Shown piece after piece: positions 57,861-64,000 of a DNA stretch of 64,000 bases (its first letter is position 1; every line of letters begins with the position of its first letter). Under the pieces are notes generated by a model. It ran no database searches and was not told the origin of the DNA. It saw only the letters and a list, made by a program, of their open reading frames with translations. The position numbers and the translations under genes are program-made. Origin of the DNA: Aureimonas sp. AU20 (GTDB taxonomy: Bacteria > Pseudomonadota > Alphaproteobacteria > Rhizobiales > Rhizobiaceae). The stretch is taken from contig NZ_CP006367.1 in the NCBI RefSeq assembly GCF_001442755.1, positions 2,170,001-2,234,000 on the forward strand, read 5' to 3'.

Positions 57861-57906
57861 TGGTGGGCGCGACACGGATCGAACCTGTGACCCCCTCGGT
57901 GTGAAC
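57861..57906 (-). other. 3' half of tRNA-Val(CAC): candidate integration-site remnant
   Basis: Read on the minus strand, 57906 to 57861 gives an anticodon loop TTCACAC (anticodon CAC), the 3' strand of the anticodon stem CGAGG, a five-base variable loop, a T-arm with loop TTCGATC, the acceptor 3' strand CGCGCCC, discriminator A and CCA. The sequence 5' to it does not supply a matching acceptor strand (GGGCGCG expected) or a D-arm, so this is not a complete tRNA. The T-stem has a G-G mismatch. Such fragments are left at the far end of elements that integrate into tRNA 3' ends. Polarity places the element to the right. Confidence 0.75.
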
Positions 57907-58070
57907 GCGGGGGCCGCAACCTGAAATGCCCGCGTGGCCTGGGTTCCCGCTCTCCACTCGATACCATGGATGCCCTTTTGTTCCCGGGCGGCAATTCGCG
58001 GTGGTTTCTGTGTTCATGCCGGAGAAAGGCTTACGCGTCATGGTGCCCGTTCCTACATTTGCGAGGAATC

Positions 58071-58427
58071 ATGGCAGACGAAAAAGCCTCGTTTTGGGAG
58101 CACCCGGATATCTGGCCTGACGAATATCTCTATATGCAAGCCGTCGCGGAGAGCATGCAGCAGCACGCCCTTATGGATCGCCTTGCCGCCGTCGCCGCCG
58201 ATCCGGTCTACGAGCTGAAGAGCCTGTTCGGCGTGAACCACCGCACCGCGGAGAGGTGGATCAGCGGGAACACCACGATGCGCCGTCCGCTGCAGCTGAA
58301 ACTCGCCCATGCTCTAGTCGGAATCGCCGAAGCGCAGGCGAAATTGCAGGCGATGGACGCCCGCGAACGCCTTTTTTTCCGGATTGCGAGCACACGCGTA
58401 CAATTGAACTCACTCCCTAAAGACTAG
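58071..58427 (+). CDS. Small helix-turn-helix-like protein at the element's left end
   Basis: A 118-residue protein with GAGGAA before its ATG. The middle segment LKSLFGVNHRTAERWISGNTTMRR resembles a helix-turn-helix in which the RTAERWISG part is the recognition helix, as in many phage and Rhizobiales regulators. The N-terminus is acidic, and the C-terminus is a predicted helix (IAEAQAKLQAMDARERL). An insertion sequence begins inside its stop codon. The original TAA (TA plus the A after the right end) is replaced by TAG, so the protein is unchanged. Transcription regulation of the element is an inference. Confidence 0.65.
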   Translation: MADEKASFWEHPDIWPDEYLYMQAVAESMQQHALMDRLAAVAADPVYELKSLFGVNHRTAERWISGNTTMRRPLQLKLAHALVGIAEAQAKLQAMDARERLFFRIASTRVQLNSLPKD

Positions 58428-58489
58428 GCTCAGGACCTGTTAATTTGTTTTGACCTCTGATTCAGTTCGGCTTTGGGACGGAGGTTTCG

Positions 58490-58858
58490 ATGGCCGGACT
58501 GTTTCTGCTGAGCGAGCGTCAGATGGCACGGATATCGCTGTTCTTCCCGCTGTCGCATGGGGTGCCGCGGGTCGACGACCGACGGGTGGTGAGCGGGATC
58601 ATCTACGTCATCCGCAACGGCTTGCAGTGGAAGGATGCGCCTGCCGGCTACGGTCCGGCGAAGACGCTCTACAACCGCTTCATCCGCTGGTCGCGGCTCG
58701 GCGTCTTCGATCGCATCTTTGCCGGGCTCGCGGGTCAGGGCCCCGGACCTGAGCGCATCATGATCGACGCCACGCACCTGAAGGCGCATCGTACGGCGGC
58801 GAGCCTTCTCAAAAAGGGGATGTTCCCCGTCGTATCGGGCGAACCAAAGGCGGCCTGA
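58490..58858 (+). CDS. IS5/IS427-type transposase, first frame
   Basis: A 122-residue N-terminal part of the transposase. It has the family start LFLLSERQMARI, then VVSGIIYVIRNGLQWKDAPAGYGP and the first catalytic Asp in IMIDATHLKAHRTA. The last 12 residues come from reading past the likely frameshift site and are not family-like. The heptamer A-AAG-GGG at 58813-58819 would shift the ribosome into the second frame. Confidence 0.88.
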   Translation: MAGLFLLSERQMARISLFFPLSHGVPRVDDRRVVSGIIYVIRNGLQWKDAPAGYGPAKTLYNRFIRWSRLGVFDRIFAGLAGQGPGPERIMIDATHLKAHRTAASLLKKGMFPVVSGEPKAA

Positions 58859-59244
58859 ACTCCAAGCTGCACACCGTCTGCGACGGCGACGGACGGCCAA
58901 TCGTCCTGCTCCTGTCCGAAGGGCAGATGAGCGATCACAGAGGCGCACGCCTCGTGCTCGACGCCCTGCCGCCCGCCATCCACCTGATCGCGGATCGGGG
59001 CTACGACAGCGCCTGGCTCCGCACCGAACTCGAAGCGCGAGGCATTCAGCCCTGCATCCCGTCGAGCCGGAGCCGCAAGGTTCCGTTCCCCTATGACGCA
59101 GCCCTCTACCGCCAGCGCCATAAGGTCGAGAACCTGTTCGCCAAGCTCAAGGACTGGCGCCGCATCGCCACTCGCTACGACCGATGCGCCCACACCTTCT
59201 TCTCGGCCATCTGCATCGCAGCCGCCGTTATCTTTTGGATCTGA
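58819..59244 (+). CDS. IS5/IS427-type transposase, second frame
   Basis: The C-terminal part, read in the -1 frame from 58819, starts PRRIGRTKGGLNSKLHTVCDG, the usual continuation of the family. It carries the second Asp in LIADRGYDSAWLR and the Glu in HKVENLFAKLKDWRRIATRYDR, completing the DDE triad. Joined at the slippery site the product would be about 251 residues, normal for this group. On its own the frame offers only a later start at 58927. Confidence 0.88.
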   Translation, partial: DVPRRIGRTKGGLNSKLHTVCDGDGRPIVLLLSEGQMSDHRGARLVLDALPPAIHLIADRGYDSAWLRTELEARGIQPCIPSSRSRKVPFPYDAALYRQRHKVENLFAKLKDWRRIATRYDRCAHTFFSAICIAAAVIFWI

Positions 59245-59332
59245 TCAATGAGTCCTGAGCCTAAGGTCCACCTCTCTGTGTTCTTATCCTTCGCAAGTCG
59301 GCACAGGCCGCACTTTGAAGGAATTGAACCGG

Positions 59333-60904
59333 ATGCCCGACCCCACCGCAGAAGACCTGCTTGCGAACGCACGCGCCCATAAGCGCGACCTGACGCACCG
59401 CGCCGAGCGCCGCGAGGCGATTCTCGCAGGCGAATTTCCCCGCGACGAGGACTACGTCTCCGGCCTGCCTCCTCTCGGCGGCTCGCTATCCCGCGACATC
59501 CGCGCCGCGGCGACGCTGTGGTCCGAGCACCTGGCGACGAAGTCGCACCACACCATCGCCGGCAAGCTCGCGCCGGCCGTCGAGAAGCTCGAGCGCATTC
59601 CATCGGCGGTGACCCTGAAGGCCGTGTGGAAGCTCGTCTCCGCCCTTCCGCCGCGCCATGTGGCCTTCCCCCAGACCGGCCACCTGAAGATCCGTTTGGC
59701 GTGGTACATGGCGCTGCAACGCGACGTCGCCGCGATCGAGCAGCTCGTCGTCCTGATCGGCCCGACAAGCGACTTCTTCCGCCGCGCCTACCTCGCGGGC
59801 GTCACCGGCGCGCAGATCCACGTCGACCCGATCGACCCGCCCTTCGCCTTCCAGGCGGACATACTCGCCTACGGCGTCGCCGAACTCGCAGTGCTCGACG
59901 ACATGCTCGACCGCTACCTGCCTTTCGCGACGGACAAGTTGAGCGCACGGGACATCCTCGAAGCCGACGAGCAGGGCGCCGGCGAGGTCGAGCATGAGGT
60001 GAAGAGCTTATTCGACGACCTGTGCGTCGCTTCCCCGGTCGTCGCGACGCCGACGCCGTTCACGCATCAGGTCCTCCACCGCACCGAGGGGCACAAGACG
60101 AGCGAGAAGCGCGACGTCTCGAAGATGTACGAAGCGCTGACGTCCCCGATCCCGCTGCACCGCATGATGTATCAGCATCTGCGCGACTTCGAATGTGCAT
60201 GGCCGCATGCGGTCGATGTCGTGCGCGCCATTGGGGCTGACCTGCGCTTCGGGAAGCCCATCCGATTCCGCCCGGTCCTCCTCGTCGGCGGCCACGGCAC
60301 GGGCAAGACCTCGATGGCGATCGCGCTCGCGGAGACGCTCGGGCTGCGCTCCATCGTGTACCCTTGCGCGTCGTCGGCCGACAATTCGTGTGGCGGAACC
60401 CAGAGCCGCTGGTCGACGGCGTCGGTCTCGACGCCGCTGGAGCTCATCCGCCAGAGCGGTATCGCCAACCCCGTCGTCATCCTCGACGAGCTGGAGAAGG
60501 CGGGTCACCATCATTCCGAGAATCTCGAGGCTGCACTTCTCCCGTTCCTGGAGCCGCATACCGCGAGCCGCTATCACGAGGCCGCACTCGACACGTCGGC
60601 CGACCTGTCGATGGTGAACTACGTCGCGACCTGCAACAGCCTCGAAGGGCTGACGAAGCCCCTTCGCGACCGCTTCCGCATCATGAAGATGCCGGATCCG
60701 GGACCGCAGCACATCGGCGCGCTCGCCCGCCGCATACTGCTCGATATCGAGGAGGAGACAGGACAGGAGGGCATGATCCCGCCGCTGGCGCCGGACGAGG
60801 AGGACGTAGTCCGCCAGGCTTGGGGTGGTGGCACCCTGCGCGAGCTCCGCCGTGCCGTCGAAACGCTTATCGCGGTCCGCGACCGTCTGGAGGTGCGTCA
60901 ATGA
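59333..60904 (+). CDS. AAA+ ATPase of a mobile element, Lon-like ATPase module
   Basis: A 523-residue protein. An N-terminal region of about 270 residues has no family I recognise. The AAA+ module follows with Walker A GGHGTGKTS near 325, Walker B VVILDELEKAG near 386, sensor-1 in YVATCNSLEGL near 430 and an arginine finger in PLRDRFRIM. The ATPase part resembles Lon, but there is no protease domain with its Ser-Lys pair. The start at 59333 has AAGGA ten bases upstream. A TTG at 59315 is possible. Its stop overlaps the next gene by four bases (ATGA). A role as a remodelling ATPase for element functions or defence is inference. Confidence 0.75.
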   Translation: MPDPTAEDLLANARAHKRDLTHRAERREAILAGEFPRDEDYVSGLPPLGGSLSRDIRAAATLWSEHLATKSHHTIAGKLAPAVEKLERIPSAVTLKAVWKLVSALPPRHVAFPQTGHLKIRLAWYMALQRDVAAIEQLVVLIGPTSDFFRRAYLAGVTGAQIHVDPIDPPFAFQADILAYGVAELAVLDDMLDRYLPFATDKLSARDILEADEQGAGEVEHEVKSLFDDLCVASPVVATPTPFTHQVLHRTEGHKTSEKRDVSKMYEALTSPIPLHRMMYQHLRDFECAWPHAVDVVRAIGADLRFGKPIRFRPVLLVGGHGTGKTSMAIALAETLGLRSIVYPCASSADNSCGGTQSRWSTASVSTPLELIRQSGIANPVVILDELEKAGHHHSENLEAALLPFLEPHTASRYHEAALDTSADLSMVNYVATCNSLEGLTKPLRDRFRIMKMPDPGPQHIGALARRILLDIEEETGQEGMIPPLAPDEEDVVRQAWGGGTLRELRRAVETLIAVRDRLEVRQ

Positions 60905-61113
60905 TCCTCGCGCTCGCTCCCGACGTCGCGGCCCGCGTGGCCGAGATCGAAGCCCGCGAGGGCATCCCGGCCGTCGAGTTCTGCCATCAAGCAATCTCGG
61001 TCTGGAGCCGGCTCCGCACCGACGCGCAGCGGGCCGGCATGGGCCTCTGCATTATCCAGTCGACCATTCGCGAGATCATGAAGGATCGCGACGCGGCCGC
61101 CCCGCAGGCCTGA
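60901..61113 (+). CDS. Small protein coupled to the AAA+ ATPase
   Basis: A 70-residue protein starting MILALAPDVAARVAEI, with a predicted helical, mildly acidic fold and two cysteines (FCHQA, GLCII). Its ATG overlaps the ATPase stop in an ATGA arrangement, so the two are likely translated together. It has no family I recognise. Tight coupling suggests an accessory subunit or regulator of the ATPase. Confidence 0.6.
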   Translation: MILALAPDVAARVAEIEAREGIPAVEFCHQAISVWSRLRTDAQRAGMGLCIIQSTIREIMKDRDAAAPQA

Positions 61114-61162
61114 AATCTTTCTACGGCGTAGCTCCCCAACATCGGCGACAGGAGGCCGGCCC

Positions 61163-62140
61163 ATGCGCAACGTGCGACTCTGGATACAGTCCGACATCCA
61201 CAACGACGTCGTCCCCTACACGCTCCCTCGCGGCGTCGAGGCCGACGTCGCCATCGTCGCCGGGGACGTCGGCGGACGCCTGTCCGGGCAGGCCCGTCTC
61301 TGGCTCGAGGCGAATGCACCGGAGGGCATGCCGATGCTCGTCGTCGCGGGCAACCACGACTTCTACGGCGCCTCGCTCGACGACGAGGTCGACCGCGTCC
61401 GTCGCAAGACGAGCATGGGCGACCGCATCCAGGTCCTCGACGGCTACAGCACGATCATCGGCGGCGTCCGCTTCGTCGGCGCCACGCTCTGGACCGACGT
61501 CAACAGCTACGGCGACGGCTACACGTCGCAGCGCGACTTCATGGCCTACATGACGGACTGGCGGGCGATTCGTTGGCAGGGCCGCAAGCACACGCGGCAC
61601 ATTCGCAATTTCATCGATGCGCACCACCGTCAGATGCGCGCCTTCGAATCTGTCTTGGCGACGCCGTTCGACGGCCCGACCGTCGTGATCACACACCACG
61701 CGCCGAGCGCGCGGTCGCTCGAGGACGGCAAGGCGACGAAGCCGTTGGATGCGGCCTACGCCAGCTATTTGGAGGATCTGATTCACAAGCACGAACCTGA
61801 TCTGTGGGTGCACGGACACGTGCACCACAACCTCGACTACATGATCGGGCGCACACGGGTCGTCTGCAATCCGCGAGGCTACGTCATGCGCCACCAGTCG
61901 CCGCGCAGCCTGCCGACGATCGAGAACCACGCCTTCAACCCCGGCCTCGTCCTCGACGTCGCTGTCGATCCGCGTCCGCGCTACGAAGCGGCGAGCGTCG
62001 ATCACGCATCGGAGCATCCGGACGTCTTCCTGTCCCGCGTCGGGCCCGCCATCGCCTCGACGCCGGCGGACCACGCGGCCTGGCTGCGCGAAGCCGCCGA
62101 GGTCCACGACGAAGACGAACCGAAGGGGCCGTCGGTCTGA
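61163..62140 (+). CDS. Metallophosphoesterase
   Basis: A 325-residue calcineurin-like phosphoesterase. All metal-binding motifs are present in order: SDIHNDV near residue 10, AGDVGG near 33, AGNHDFYG near 66, ITHHAPS near 175 and VHGHVHHNLD near 215. After about residue 260 comes an acidic C-terminal tail. Its stop (TGA) shares one base with the ATG of the next gene. Substrates of this fold range from nucleotides to nucleic acids and phosphoproteins, so none can be given. Confidence 0.85.
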   Translation: MRNVRLWIQSDIHNDVVPYTLPRGVEADVAIVAGDVGGRLSGQARLWLEANAPEGMPMLVVAGNHDFYGASLDDEVDRVRRKTSMGDRIQVLDGYSTIIGGVRFVGATLWTDVNSYGDGYTSQRDFMAYMTDWRAIRWQGRKHTRHIRNFIDAHHRQMRAFESVLATPFDGPTVVITHHAPSARSLEDGKATKPLDAAYASYLEDLIHKHEPDLWVHGHVHHNLDYMIGRTRVVCNPRGYVMRHQSPRSLPTIENHAFNPGLVLDVAVDPRPRYEAASVDHASEHPDVFLSRVGPAIASTPADHAAWLREAAEVHDEDEPKGPSV

Positions 62141-62955
62141 TGCGCGTCCACGTCCTCTCCGACCTGCACCTGGAACACCGTGCCGGCGCCGGTTGGGAAC
62201 CGCTCGTCGTCGACTGCGACGTCGTCGTGGTCGCGGGCGACGTCGCGTCCCCGCCGGCGGCGTCCCTGCGCTGGCTTTCGGAGCGCTTTCAGGCGCCCGT
62301 GATCTTCGTCGCCGGCAACCACGAGTACTACGGCTGCGTGAAGGCCAGAGTGGAAACGCCGGACCCCGTGCCCGGCGTCCATCACCTCGAGGATCGCGCC
62401 GTCGTCCTCGGCGGAACCCGCTTCCTCGGCTGCACGCTCTGGACCGACTACGAGCTCTACGGCCCGGCGACGACGAGCTTCGCGATGGAGATCGCGGAGC
62501 GCGGGATCAACGACCACCGCATGATCGCGGCGTCGGATCCGGACGAGCACCGCCGCATCCTCCGCTTCATGCCCTAGCATGCGCGCACGCTGTACCTGGC
62601 GTCGCGGATCTGGCTGGAGGAGGAGCTGACGAAGCCGTTCGACGGCCCGACGGTGGTGGTGACGCACCATGCGCCGACGCCGCGGTCGATCCATCCGCGC
62701 TACGAAGGCGACGTGGCGAACCCCGCGTTCGCGTCCGATCTTACCGACCTTGTAGCCCGCGTCGGCCCGGACCTGTGGATCCACGGGCACGTGCACGACA
62801 GCTTCGACTACCGGATCGGGCGGACCCGCGTCCTCGCCAATCCGAAGGGCTACGGCGACGAGAACAAAGCGTTCGATCAGAGCCTGGTGGTGGACGTCCG
62901 GTACCATCCGAACTGGCGTGCGCGGATCCAGGACGCGCAGGAGCCGAAGCCGTGA
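62140..62955 (+). pseudogene. Second metallophosphoesterase interrupted by an amber codon
   Basis: A paralogue of the preceding gene, read in one frame over 271 codons with a single TAG at 62575-62577. The N-terminal part (145 residues) has SDLHLEH, AGDVAS and AGNHEYYG. The part after the stop has VTHHAPT and IHGHVHDSFD, needed for the metal site. The codon is where CAG (Gln) would fit the surrounding sequence, consistent with a single C-to-T change. Both halves stay well conserved, so the mutation is recent, or the stop is read through, or the base is a sequencing error. The GTG of the next gene overlaps its final stop. Confidence 0.75.
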
Positions 62956-63131
62956 GCCGCGAGGACCACGTCCGTCGGCGCGCCGCGTCGCTCGGCTACG
63001 ACCGCACGATTCGTGGGACCGGCGTCCTCCCGTCCGACCTCCACGAACTCTATGCGCTCGGAATGATCAGCCGGGAGGACCTCGTCTTCCGGCTGGAGCG
63101 CCTGGGCGCGCCGATCCCCGCCGTCGACTGA
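62952..63131 (+). CDS. Small protein coupled to the phosphoesterase paralogue
   Basis: A 59-residue protein with a GTG start overlapping the upstream stop by four bases (GTGA). It is charged, with an arginine-rich N-terminus (EDHVRRRAASLGYDR) and a C-terminal helix (ISREDLVFRLERLG). I do not recognise a family. Placement inside a run of overlapping genes is the main support. Confidence 0.5.
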   Translation: MSREDHVRRRAASLGYDRTIRGTGVLPSDLHELYALGMISREDLVFRLERLGAPIPAVD

Positions 63132-63153
63132 ACCCAACAACACGGAGACGACC

Positions 63154-63546
63154 ATGCGACTGATCCTCGCCACCCTTTCGCTCGCCCTTGTCACGCCGGC
63201 GGCGGCCGCGGACCGATACTCCGGACACTACCAGCGCGAATGCGACGACCTGGTCTGCGAGCTGCGCATGCTGCCGGCCGGGCGCGACGCCTGGCATCTG
63301 CGCTGGACGGCGACGGACCCGACGGACTTTTCGCTGACGCCGGTGTGCGAATTCGAGACGGAAGTGGAGCTCGGGATCGCGACGATCGGCGGGGCGATCG
63401 TGCGCGGCATCGCGGTCGGGAAGGCGGCGGGACGGCCGTTCGGGGTGTTCGATCTCGACCCGGGCCGCGTGTCGGTGTCGGCGGGGTGGGAGGCCTGTGC
63501 CGGCATGGGGCCGAAGGGCGTCTACGAAAGCGTCAGAGACCAATAA
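63154..63546 (+). CDS. Secreted hypothetical protein
   Basis: A 130-residue protein with a clear signal peptide (RLILATLSLALVTPAAAA, cleavage near residue 19). The mature part has four cysteines: C31 and C36 close together (RECDDLVCEL), one in PVCEFE near 68 and one in EACAGMG near 118, suggesting two disulfides. Beta-rich composition. No family is recognised. It follows the 59-residue gene after 22 bases and ends the plus-strand run. Confidence 0.65.
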   Translation: MRLILATLSLALVTPAAAADRYSGHYQRECDDLVCELRMLPAGRDAWHLRWTATDPTDFSLTPVCEFETEVELGIATIGGAIVRGIAVGKAAGRPFGVFDLDPGRVSVSAGWEACAGMGPKGVYESVRDQ

Positions 63547-63573: not shown

Positions 63574-63673
63574 GAGCGGTGCGCAAAGCGGTGCGCAAAA
63601 ATGCGCTCATGACCCGTCCGAGGAAGGTCCCGTTAAAGCGAACGATATGACGTGATCGTTCGCTCCGACCCCT

Positions 63674-64000
63674 TCAGCCGAATGGCGGCCGCTGCTGCGG
63701 CTGCGCACCCCCCGCCATCGGACCGCCCGGAGCCGCTGCCGGACCACCTGGCGCGCCCGCGAACGGCACTCCCGGCTTCGGCGGCATCGCCCCGGCCTGA
63801 CCCGTCGAGCCCGGCATCCCCTGACCCATGGACGGGCCGCCCATCTGCTGAAAAGGCATACCCGGAACGCCACCGGCGGGCGGCTGCGGCTGCTGCATAC
63901 CCGGCGCCGGCATGCCTCCGGGCATCGCGCCCGGCATGGCCGGAGCGGGCATGAAGCCGGCGCCGAGCGGCGGGGCCGAGCGCATCGCGGCCGGGCCCGG
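63674..64000 (-). CDS. C-terminus of a Pro/Gly/Met-rich protein, N-terminus outside the window
   Basis: The minus-strand frame is open from the right edge to TGA at 63674-63676, about 108 residues. Composition is extreme: repeated GMP, GGP and PGM units with glutamine and almost no charged residues. Such tails are usually disordered and occur at the ends of some phage, membrane and secreted proteins. An ATG at 63985 could start a short protein, but the frame continues upstream, so it is more likely the tail of a longer one. It is convergent with the secreted protein gene. Confidence 0.55.
   Translation of the reverse strand, partial: PGPAAMRSAPPLGAGFMPAPAMPGAMPGGMPAPGMQQPQPPAGGVPGMPFQQMGGPSMGQGMPGSTGQAGAMPPKPGVPFAGAPGGPAAAPGGPMAGGAQPQQRPPFG

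What the first reader, a model, noticed from the sequence alone, without database searches (positions are those of the whole stretch)
59333..63546. Coupled AAA+ ATPase / metallophosphoesterase / small-protein cassette
Six genes follow closely, most overlapping by 1-4 bases: AAA+ ATPase with a unique N-terminal half, a 70-residue protein, two paralogous metallophosphoesterases, a 59-residue protein and a secreted four-cysteine protein. ATPase plus nuclease-like hydrolase plus small partners on a tRNA-borne element is a pattern seen in phage early regions and in defence or anti-phage islands. I recognise no described system with this set.
Basis: partly seen in the sequence, partly recalled or inferred. 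Interest (0 to 1): 0.7.

Follow-up and report, generated by a model that had tools for sequence, protein, structure and literature searches.

The report
Prophage-end AAA+, RHH and phosphoesterase cassette
This is a recurrent gene set carried at the end of prophages and other DNA elements inserted in tRNA genes, in which an ATP-driven protein-unfolding machine travels with a small antitoxin-like protein and one to three metal-dependent phosphoesterases, possibly as a phage-defence or toxin-type module.

Summary
The genes are real, but the second phosphoesterase (MPE2) is split by an in-frame TAG. An upstream HTH gene (58071-58427) belongs to the set; an IS5-family insertion separates it from the ATPase. 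The set recurs in the same order, MPE2 intact, in Aureimonas sp. SK2 and at one end of a predicted 70.9-kb provirus with integrase, terminase and portal; virion genes of that provirus follow the cassette here too. In 18 Aurantimonadaceae loci, 15 have the 70-aa gene at the ATPase stop (-4 to +17 bp), 15 have MPEs downstream, 13 a same-strand tRNA upstream. In related elements an FtsH-type AAA+/M41 protease fills the Lon-type AAA slot while RHH and MPEs stay. The 70-aa protein looks like a ribbon-helix-helix antitoxin (best PDB match EndoAI, E 0.0041). Best reading: a prophage accessory module in which an AAA+ unfoldase/protease controls an RHH protein and phosphoesterase effectors, probably for defence or addiction. 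Function is inferred; neighbouring genes gave no clear defence enrichment, and no structure prediction ran (18 'busy' answers).

The parts
57861..57907 (-). 3' fragment of tRNA-Val (cac): attachment-site remnant at the far end of a 37-kb island; the intact tRNA is at G000:C1:2264812-2264886
   Evidence: extent of 47 nt by eye; a relative's tRNA-Val region matches this place over 52 nt at 96%
58071..58427 (+). HTH-type protein (118 aa), first gene of the set
   Evidence: 114 of 119 positions, stop included, identical to the first gene of the provirus copy (L284); homologue upstream of AAA in L081. HTH assignment is by eye; Pfam gave nothing
58427..59263 (+). IS5-family insertion between the HTH gene and the ATPase; transposase in two frames (58490-58858, 58927-59244), terminal inverted repeat GGCTCAGGAC
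   Evidence: Pfam DUF4096 and DDE; the provirus copy is continuous where the window has this insert (blast blocks end at window 58428 and restart at 59264); repeat seen; ends approximate
59333..60904 (+). Lon-type AAA+ ATPase without protease domain, hypervariable N-terminal half
60901..61113 (+). 70-aa protein, probable ribbon-helix-helix fold
61163..62140 (+). Metallophosphoesterase MPE1 (phrog_1649 type), metal-binding motifs present
62140..62955 (+). Second metallophosphoesterase MPE2, interrupted by an in-frame TAG at 62575-62577; intact copies exist in relatives
62952..63131 (+). 59-aa protein, optional member
63154..63546 (+). Secreted-looking four-cysteine protein (130 aa), recurrent optional member
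63670..64000 (-). Start of a prophage virion-gene remnant that continues beyond the window
   Evidence: 86-87% DNA identity to provirus G600 next to its cassette

Best explanation
Shown: this is an accessory operon at the attachment-site end of a decayed prophage in a tRNA-Val island. It belongs to a family of modules in tRNA-linked elements with the order HTH, AAA+ machine, RHH-like small protein, one to three metallophosphoesterases (type A and/or B), plus optional extras. The AAA+ slot is filled by a Lon-type AAA without protease or by an FtsH-type AAA+ with M41 protease. Inferred: the AAA+ machine is a dedicated unfoldase/protease whose variable N-terminal half recognises a trigger or substrate; the RHH protein is the labile partner (autorepressor and perhaps antitoxin); acting on it frees or switches on the phosphoesterases, which cut nucleic acid or a nucleotide. 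The likely benefit is defence of the lysogen against other phages, or addiction to the element.
For: Same six genes and order in Aureimonas sp. SK2 and in the provirus. In 18 Aurantimonadaceae loci: RHH-like gene next to AAA in 15, MPE downstream in 15, two or more MPEs in 5 (some of these loci went into the profiles, see full report); 20 control regions of 12 kb gave no MPE-A, no RHH and one MPE-B match. The AAA slot holds AAA+M41 in L148, with RHH, MPE-B, two MPE-A and the 130-aa gene kept, and in L194. RHH: profile's best PDB match is antitoxin EndoAI, E 0.0041; Pfam RHH_1 E 0.0038 at best, 2 of 7 members. Walker A and B motifs in 19 of 19 Aurantimonadaceae-clade ATPases. ATPase profile: Lon first. 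All five MPE motifs in 14 of 14 type-A rows. Prophage location. Precedents: a metallophosphatase joined to a P-loop NTPase is the anti-phage system DS-8 (PMC13092281, passages); prophages and satellites carry defence hotspots (PMC9122126, search listing).
Against: No functional data. The RHH assignment is weak by sequence; in one search a chance-like hit (methionyl-tRNA synthetase, E 0.012) ranked above a CopG regulator (E 0.082). The Lon-type AAA has no protease domain, so degradation would need a host protease. MPE is missing in 3 of 18 Aurantimonadaceae loci (one at a contig end) and the RHH match in 3 of 18. More distant AAA relatives often lack both: 6 of 13 other loci have no MPE nearby and none of the 13 has an RHH match; 5 of 10 plasmid regions have no MPE match and none of the 10 an RHH match. 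Neighbouring genes show no clear excess of defence models. Fold and complex could not be modelled.
Confidence: 0.4

Rival explanations
1. Element-control module: the HTH and RHH proteins repress the element's own genes, the AAA+ protein is an antirepressor that removes a repressor on a signal (as ImmA removes ImmR, recalled), and the phosphoesterases help excision, replication or DNA repair.
For: An integrase lies between the tRNA and the HTH/AAA+ genes in L091, L092, L093, L098, L148, L194; Rha-type phage genes lie in L081, L082, L089, L104, L197, L199; the M41 version belongs to a true protease family.
Against: In G600 the cassette lies next to virion genes. Two loci beside tRNA-Thr with no hit to the two integrases queried keep AAA, RHH and MPE (L096, L097). 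Gain and loss of MPE copies is odd for core control genes.
Confidence: 0.25
2. Counter-defence or host-takeover genes: the phosphoesterases destroy host DNA or defence signal nucleotides and the AAA+ protein dismantles host complexes during infection.
For: MPE1 relatives occur in 152 of 50,697 phage records, 40 of them covering 80% or more of the query; the 15 rows listed have 36-40% identity. A phage MPE, Gp48, is reported as toxic, harmful to host DNA and blunting defence (PMC12287305, abstract, section list and passages).
Against: No full-length relative of the ATPase was found in phage records: the 8 of 50,697 records that match P0001 align over the AAA part only, at 25-34% identity, two of them annotated lon. 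The operon sits at the prophage end, as lysogenic cargo often does (recalled).
Confidence: 0.2
3. Unrelated cargo genes that happen to accumulate at tRNA sites, with no joint function.
For: The 59-aa, 130-aa and some MPE genes come and go; 6 of 19 MPE-A genes in the genus are not close to an AAA+ or RHH match, one of the 6 being 7 kb from it.
Against: AAA stop to start of the RHH match is -4 to +17 bp in 15 of 15 loci that have both; same order with two different AAA+ types; AAA, RHH and MPE together beside different tRNA genes.
Confidence: 0.08

Closest known systems
Lon protease AAA+ module
   Same: Profile of the ATPase family matches solved Lon AAA domains best (E 3.6e-27)
   Different: No Lon protease domain; different, hypervariable N-terminal half
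FtsH-type AAA+ / peptidase M41
   Same: Fills the same slot in related elements (L148, L194)
   Different: The window's protein is not of this type
Type II toxin-antitoxin systems with RHH antitoxin (MazE/EndoAI, CopG)
   Same: Small RHH-like protein directly upstream of an enzyme gene; best solved match is EndoAI
   Different: The enzyme is a metallophosphoesterase, and a dedicated AAA+ gene is coupled upstream; toxicity untested
DS-8 and DS-9 (DefensePredictor, PMC13092281, passages seen)
   Same: Metallophosphatase activity needed for phage defence; DS-8 pairs it with a P-loop NTPase
   Different: DS-8 is a single protein with a NACHT domain and an SMPDL3A-like phosphatase; no RHH or Lon-type AAA is mentioned for it in the passages seen; sequences not compared here
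PADLOC candidate PDC-S10
   Same: Model matches MPE1 (E 6.4e-10) and the intact MPE2 homologue (E 1.8e-14)
   Different: A candidate only; no paper in the library names it
IetAS
   Same: AAA ATPase plus hydrolase on mobile DNA (recalled)
   Different: Match only over a short stretch at the Walker A region (16.8 bits); partner is a protease in IetAS (recalled), not a phosphoesterase
Mycobacteriophage Gp48 metallophosphoesterase (PMC12287305, abstract and passages)
   Same: Phage-borne MPE, toxic to the host
   Different: Described as an early gene of phage infection; not compared by sequence

Membership tests
Lon protease | Lon-type AAA+ module | tested here: met
Lon protease | C-terminal Ser-Lys protease domain | tested here: not met
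   Pfam finds only AAA-type and related P-loop domains; the protein ends 73 residues after the AAA match
Type II toxin-antitoxin with RHH antitoxin | RHH antitoxin fold | tested here: inconclusive
   structure prediction not available
Type II toxin-antitoxin with RHH antitoxin | Adjacent toxin neutralised by the antitoxin | not testable with these tools
   needs expression tests
FtsH-type AAA+ protease | Peptidase M41 domain | tested here: not met
   absent from the window protein; present in the slot in L148
IetAS | IetA-type ATPase over its full length | tested here: not met
   only short matches around Walker A
IetAS | Subtilisin-like partner (feature recalled) | tested here: not met
   no such match in the set
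DS-8 | Metallophosphatase and NACHT in one protein | tested here: not met
   separate genes; AAA, no NACHT match
PADLOC PDC-S10 | Match to the PDC-S10 model | tested here: met
   no curated score cut-off is given for this library
Prophage cargo | Lies inside a provirus with integrase and virion genes | tested here: met
   G600 (predicted provirus, no completeness estimate): integrase, terminase, portal, head; the window copy is next to remnants of the same virion genes
Anti-phage defence system | Reduces phage infection | not testable with these tools
   no experiment
Anti-phage defence system | Enriched beside known defence genes | tested here: inconclusive
   150 of 226 neighbour ORFs against 150 of 192 control ORFs: KwaA, KwaB, MkoB, AbiJ among 20 families against DpdF, PsyrT, DrmC among 37 families, 25 shown

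The most novel reading that the evidence does not exclude
A new class of prophage-borne, proteolysis-gated effector system: a swappable AAA+ unfoldase or protease with a fast-evolving sensor half destroys or remodels an RHH antitoxin-repressor when it senses infection, freeing one or several metallophosphoesterase toxins.
Probability: 0.25. Interest if true: 0.85.

Novelty: new variant of a known kind. Interest (0 to 1): 0.6.

Why it matters
If the mechanism holds, it adds metallophosphoesterases to the toxin-type effectors with a dedicated AAA+ control, and shows that element-borne modules can swap a Lon-type unfoldase for an FtsH-type protease while keeping the antitoxin-like protein and the effector. 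Even without it, the family gives a clear experimental target: a compact operon beside tRNA genes and at a prophage end in Aurantimonadaceae, with looser relatives in Bradyrhizobium, Methylobacterium and plasmids.

Tried and rejected
Defence-island enrichment: inconclusive. Empty-site test by the pntB flank: all 21 genus genomes have the flank, but none of the 21 loci (the window's own included) shows a complete tRNA beside it, and nothing past the pntB stop matched in the 20 relatives, so the left boundary rests on the repeat alone. The right flank did work: found in 20 of 21 genomes, tRNA-Val(cac) in all 20 loci, and in the 9 relatives compared homology to the island stops at the tRNA 3' end. 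Viral contigs with the single ATPase: no hit; the alignment found three. FtsH-type protein: no match in plasmids at E 1e-40 or in viral contigs. The 70-aa protein alone is too divergent for a plain search (5 of 297 genomes; the second own copy at E 5e-4, the four other genomes at 9e-4 to 0.01, the limit). Aligning five small RHH-like neighbours gave no useful alignment. A DS-8-like protein was suspected for the 1063-aa gene in G600; the PDB search gave nothing and PHROGs matched an SbcD-like family. Rfam and ARAGORN found nothing in the window.

Considered and dropped: chance clustering (order and gaps too regular); a replication module (the provirus copy is at the prophage end).
Full report
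Observation. The window is G000:C1:2170001-2234000 of a 5.21-Mb genome; the closest named relative found for the ATPase is in Aureimonas. The ATPase (59333-60904) overlaps the 70-aa ORF by 4 bp; MPE1 starts 49 bp later; the MPE2 frame starts on the last base of the MPE1 stop; the 59-aa ORF overlaps the end of the MPE2 frame by 4 bp; the 130-aa ORF starts 22 bp further on. MPE2 has an in-frame TAG at 62575-62577. Both parts match phrog_1649. Intact copies exist, and dN/dS (NG86) against SK2 is low on both sides of the stop (0.155 and 0.132), so the break is recent, or an error of the assembly.

Boundaries. A 34-bp stretch at 57861-57894 recurs with one mismatch in the intact tRNA-Val(cac) 37 kb away, and with three mismatches at three other places of the genome. 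The right flank is conserved with tRNA-Val in 20 of 21 genus genomes, and homology to the island stops at the tRNA 3' end in 9 of 9 relatives compared. The left-flank test was uninformative. Between the HTH gene and the ATPase lies an IS5-family insertion; the provirus copy is continuous there.

A second copy. At the other end of the island, reading inwards from the tRNA, lie an Abi_C/AbiJ-type gene (Pfam E 4.5e-14; PADLOC AbiJ E 2.3e-20), a second ATPase (591 aa), a 70-aa relative (35% identity) and an MPE broken by a stop and a frameshift.

Recurrence. One genome-contig scan gave 31 loci: 18 Aurantimonadaceae (several from one genome) and 13 Bradyrhizobium, Methylobacterium or Methylorubrum. 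The profiles used were built in part from these loci (RHH: five of the 18, more; HTH: five; AAA and MPE likewise), so those match by construction. In the 18: RHH-like match next to AAA in 15 (none in L084, L088, L095; L095 is at a contig end), the AAA stop to match start being -4 to +17 bp in 15 of 15; MPE downstream on the same strand in 15 (none in L086, L094, L095); two or more MPEs in L081, L085, L089, L091, L093; the 130-aa gene in 5; HTH match upstream in 10; a same-strand tRNA gene within 3 kb upstream in 13, of six kinds (Thr-cgt six, Val-tac three, Val-cac, Pro-ggg, Pro-cgg, Arg-cct one each). Of the other 13, 7 have an MPE within 4 kb and none an RHH match. Control: 20 regions of 12 kb at round positions in seven genomes of the genus and family gave 0 MPE-A, 0 RHH, 1 MPE-B and 1 AAA-type match; 2 of the 20 hold any tRNA. 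Of 20 places fetched from the family search (22 non-Lon places stood in the list; the two weakest were left out), 11 have an MPE match, one of them weak. In plasmids 129 records match the ATPase; of 10 regions opened, 5 have an MPE match. In the genus set, 9 of 21 genomes have the ATPase (13 places) and 8 of 21 an MPE-A (20 hits; merging two pieces of one broken gene, 19 genes). Of these 19, 13 lie within about 3.5 kb of an AAA+ or RHH match, one lies 7 kb away, and 5 have none nearby (four of the five opened; the G505 one was not). The 130-aa gene occurs in 3 of 21, each time beside an MPE.

The swapped motor. In L148 the order is tRNA-Arg, integrase, HTH, 161-aa gene, a 543-aa protein with AAA (E 6.1e-29) and peptidase M41 (E 3.2e-14), RHH, MPE-B, MPE-A, MPE-A, 130-aa gene. 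A search of 297 family genomes with this protein gave 57 genomes with matches at E 1e-60 or better, the weaker ones perhaps ordinary FtsH. I fetched 20 of the best 23 places: RHH match in 4, HTH upstream in 6, MPE on the same strand within 4 kb in 11. L194 has the order tRNA, integrase, HTH, FtsH-type, RHH, RHH, MPE-B, MPE-A, 130-aa gene. So the RHH and MPE part is tied to an AAA+ unfolding machine, not to one ATPase family.

Prophage. An alignment search of viral contigs found three records. One, 70.9 kb (G600, predicted, no completeness estimate), carries at one end HTH (114 of 119 positions identical to the window's), ATPase (61%), RHH, MPE1, MPE2, 59-aa matches in two pieces and the 130-aa gene, an integrase at the other end, and terminase, portal, head and ejection-type proteins (10 of 73 ORFs tested, 8 with PHROG matches). 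DNA of its virion genes follows the cassette in the window genome at 87%, with about 2.4 kb missing, and in SK2. The window copy is thus beside remains of the same kind of prophage.

Proteins. The ATPase is of Lon type by profile (52 solved sequences at E 0.001 or better, Lon first) without a protease domain. In 19 clade sequences (171 pairs) the N-terminal half has a median 18% identity and the AAA part 55%; Walker A and B motifs are found in 19 of 19, my stricter patterns for the arginine-finger and sensor-2 regions miss some rows. The 70-aa family is RHH-like: RHH_1 E 0.0038 at best, 2 of 7 members; with 19 rows the best of six PDB matches is antitoxin EndoAI (MazE of Bacillus, recalled), E 0.0041; with 7 rows a methionyl-tRNA synthetase came first at 0.012 and a CopG regulator second at 0.082. 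MPE-A proteins keep the D-x-H, GD, GNH, second-histidine and GH-x-H patterns in 14 of 14 rows, the one type-B row keeping four of five (motif names recalled). Nearest solved MPE matches are weak.

Mechanism. The anatomy points to a regulated enzyme: two DNA-binding-type small proteins, an ATP-driven unfoldase or protease, and hydrolases. The simplest chain is: trigger, AAA+ action on the RHH protein, release or derepression of the MPE. Every step after the anatomy is inferred. RHH antitoxins are classic substrates of Lon-type proteases (recalled). Precedent for an MPE with a P-loop NTPase in defence is DS-8 (PMC13092281, passages). Rivals are control of the element and counter-defence. Neighbour survey: of 226 neighbour ORFs in 24 loci I scanned 150; KwaA, KwaB, MkoB and AbiJ matched among 20 defence models, but 150 of 192 control ORFs matched 37 models (25 shown), DpdF, PsyrT and DrmC among them. 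Integrases (phrog_1) matched 7 of 150 neighbours and are not among the 25 families listed for the controls, whose last listed rows have one member each, so at most one control matches. The data support integrative elements, not defence islands.

Literature. Searches for metallophosphoesterase with AAA, antiphage, AAA+ protease or toxin-antitoxin, for PDC-S10, and for Aureimonas with islands or prophage found no description of this set; the library holds open-licence papers only.

Noticed in passing
G000:C1:2260904-2264901 (L012): Second, diverged copy of the module beside the intact tRNA-Val, with an AbiJ/Abi_C-type gene between tRNA and ATPase and a broken MPE.
   Followed up: partly
window 58427-59263: IS5-family element inserted between the HTH gene and the ATPase; may change the operon's transcription.
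   Followed up: partly
G000:C1:2244805-2252416 (L011-L012): Large ORFs that by eye look like a cellulose-synthase operon, as cargo of the same 37-kb island (no family search made).
   Followed up: no
L288:2504-5692 (provirus G600): 1063-aa protein that by eye begins like a metallophosphoesterase, with an SbcD-like PHROG match at residues 561-835; possible further nuclease or defence gene.
   Followed up: partly
G000:C1:2239538-2239924 (L011): ORF that by eye looks like a PIN-domain toxin, inside the island.
   Followed up: no
L049 (Acidiphilium pACRY02): AAA relative with no MPE match, next to an MbcA/ParS/Xre antitoxin and RES-domain pair and a His-Xaa-Ser peptide cluster (annotation).
   Followed up: no
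L150 and L195 (G159): MPE-A beside an Abi_C-domain ORF (Pfam E 3.5e-10) and transposase-like ORFs (by eye), about 7 kb from an FtsH-type/RHH/MPE-B module.
   Followed up: partly
L155 (G501:C75), L149 (G159): Decayed module copies: ATPase and MPE broken by several stops near tRNA-Lys (L155); an IS3-type insertion by eye between a remnant of an FtsH-type gene, RHH and MPEs (L149).
   Followed up: no
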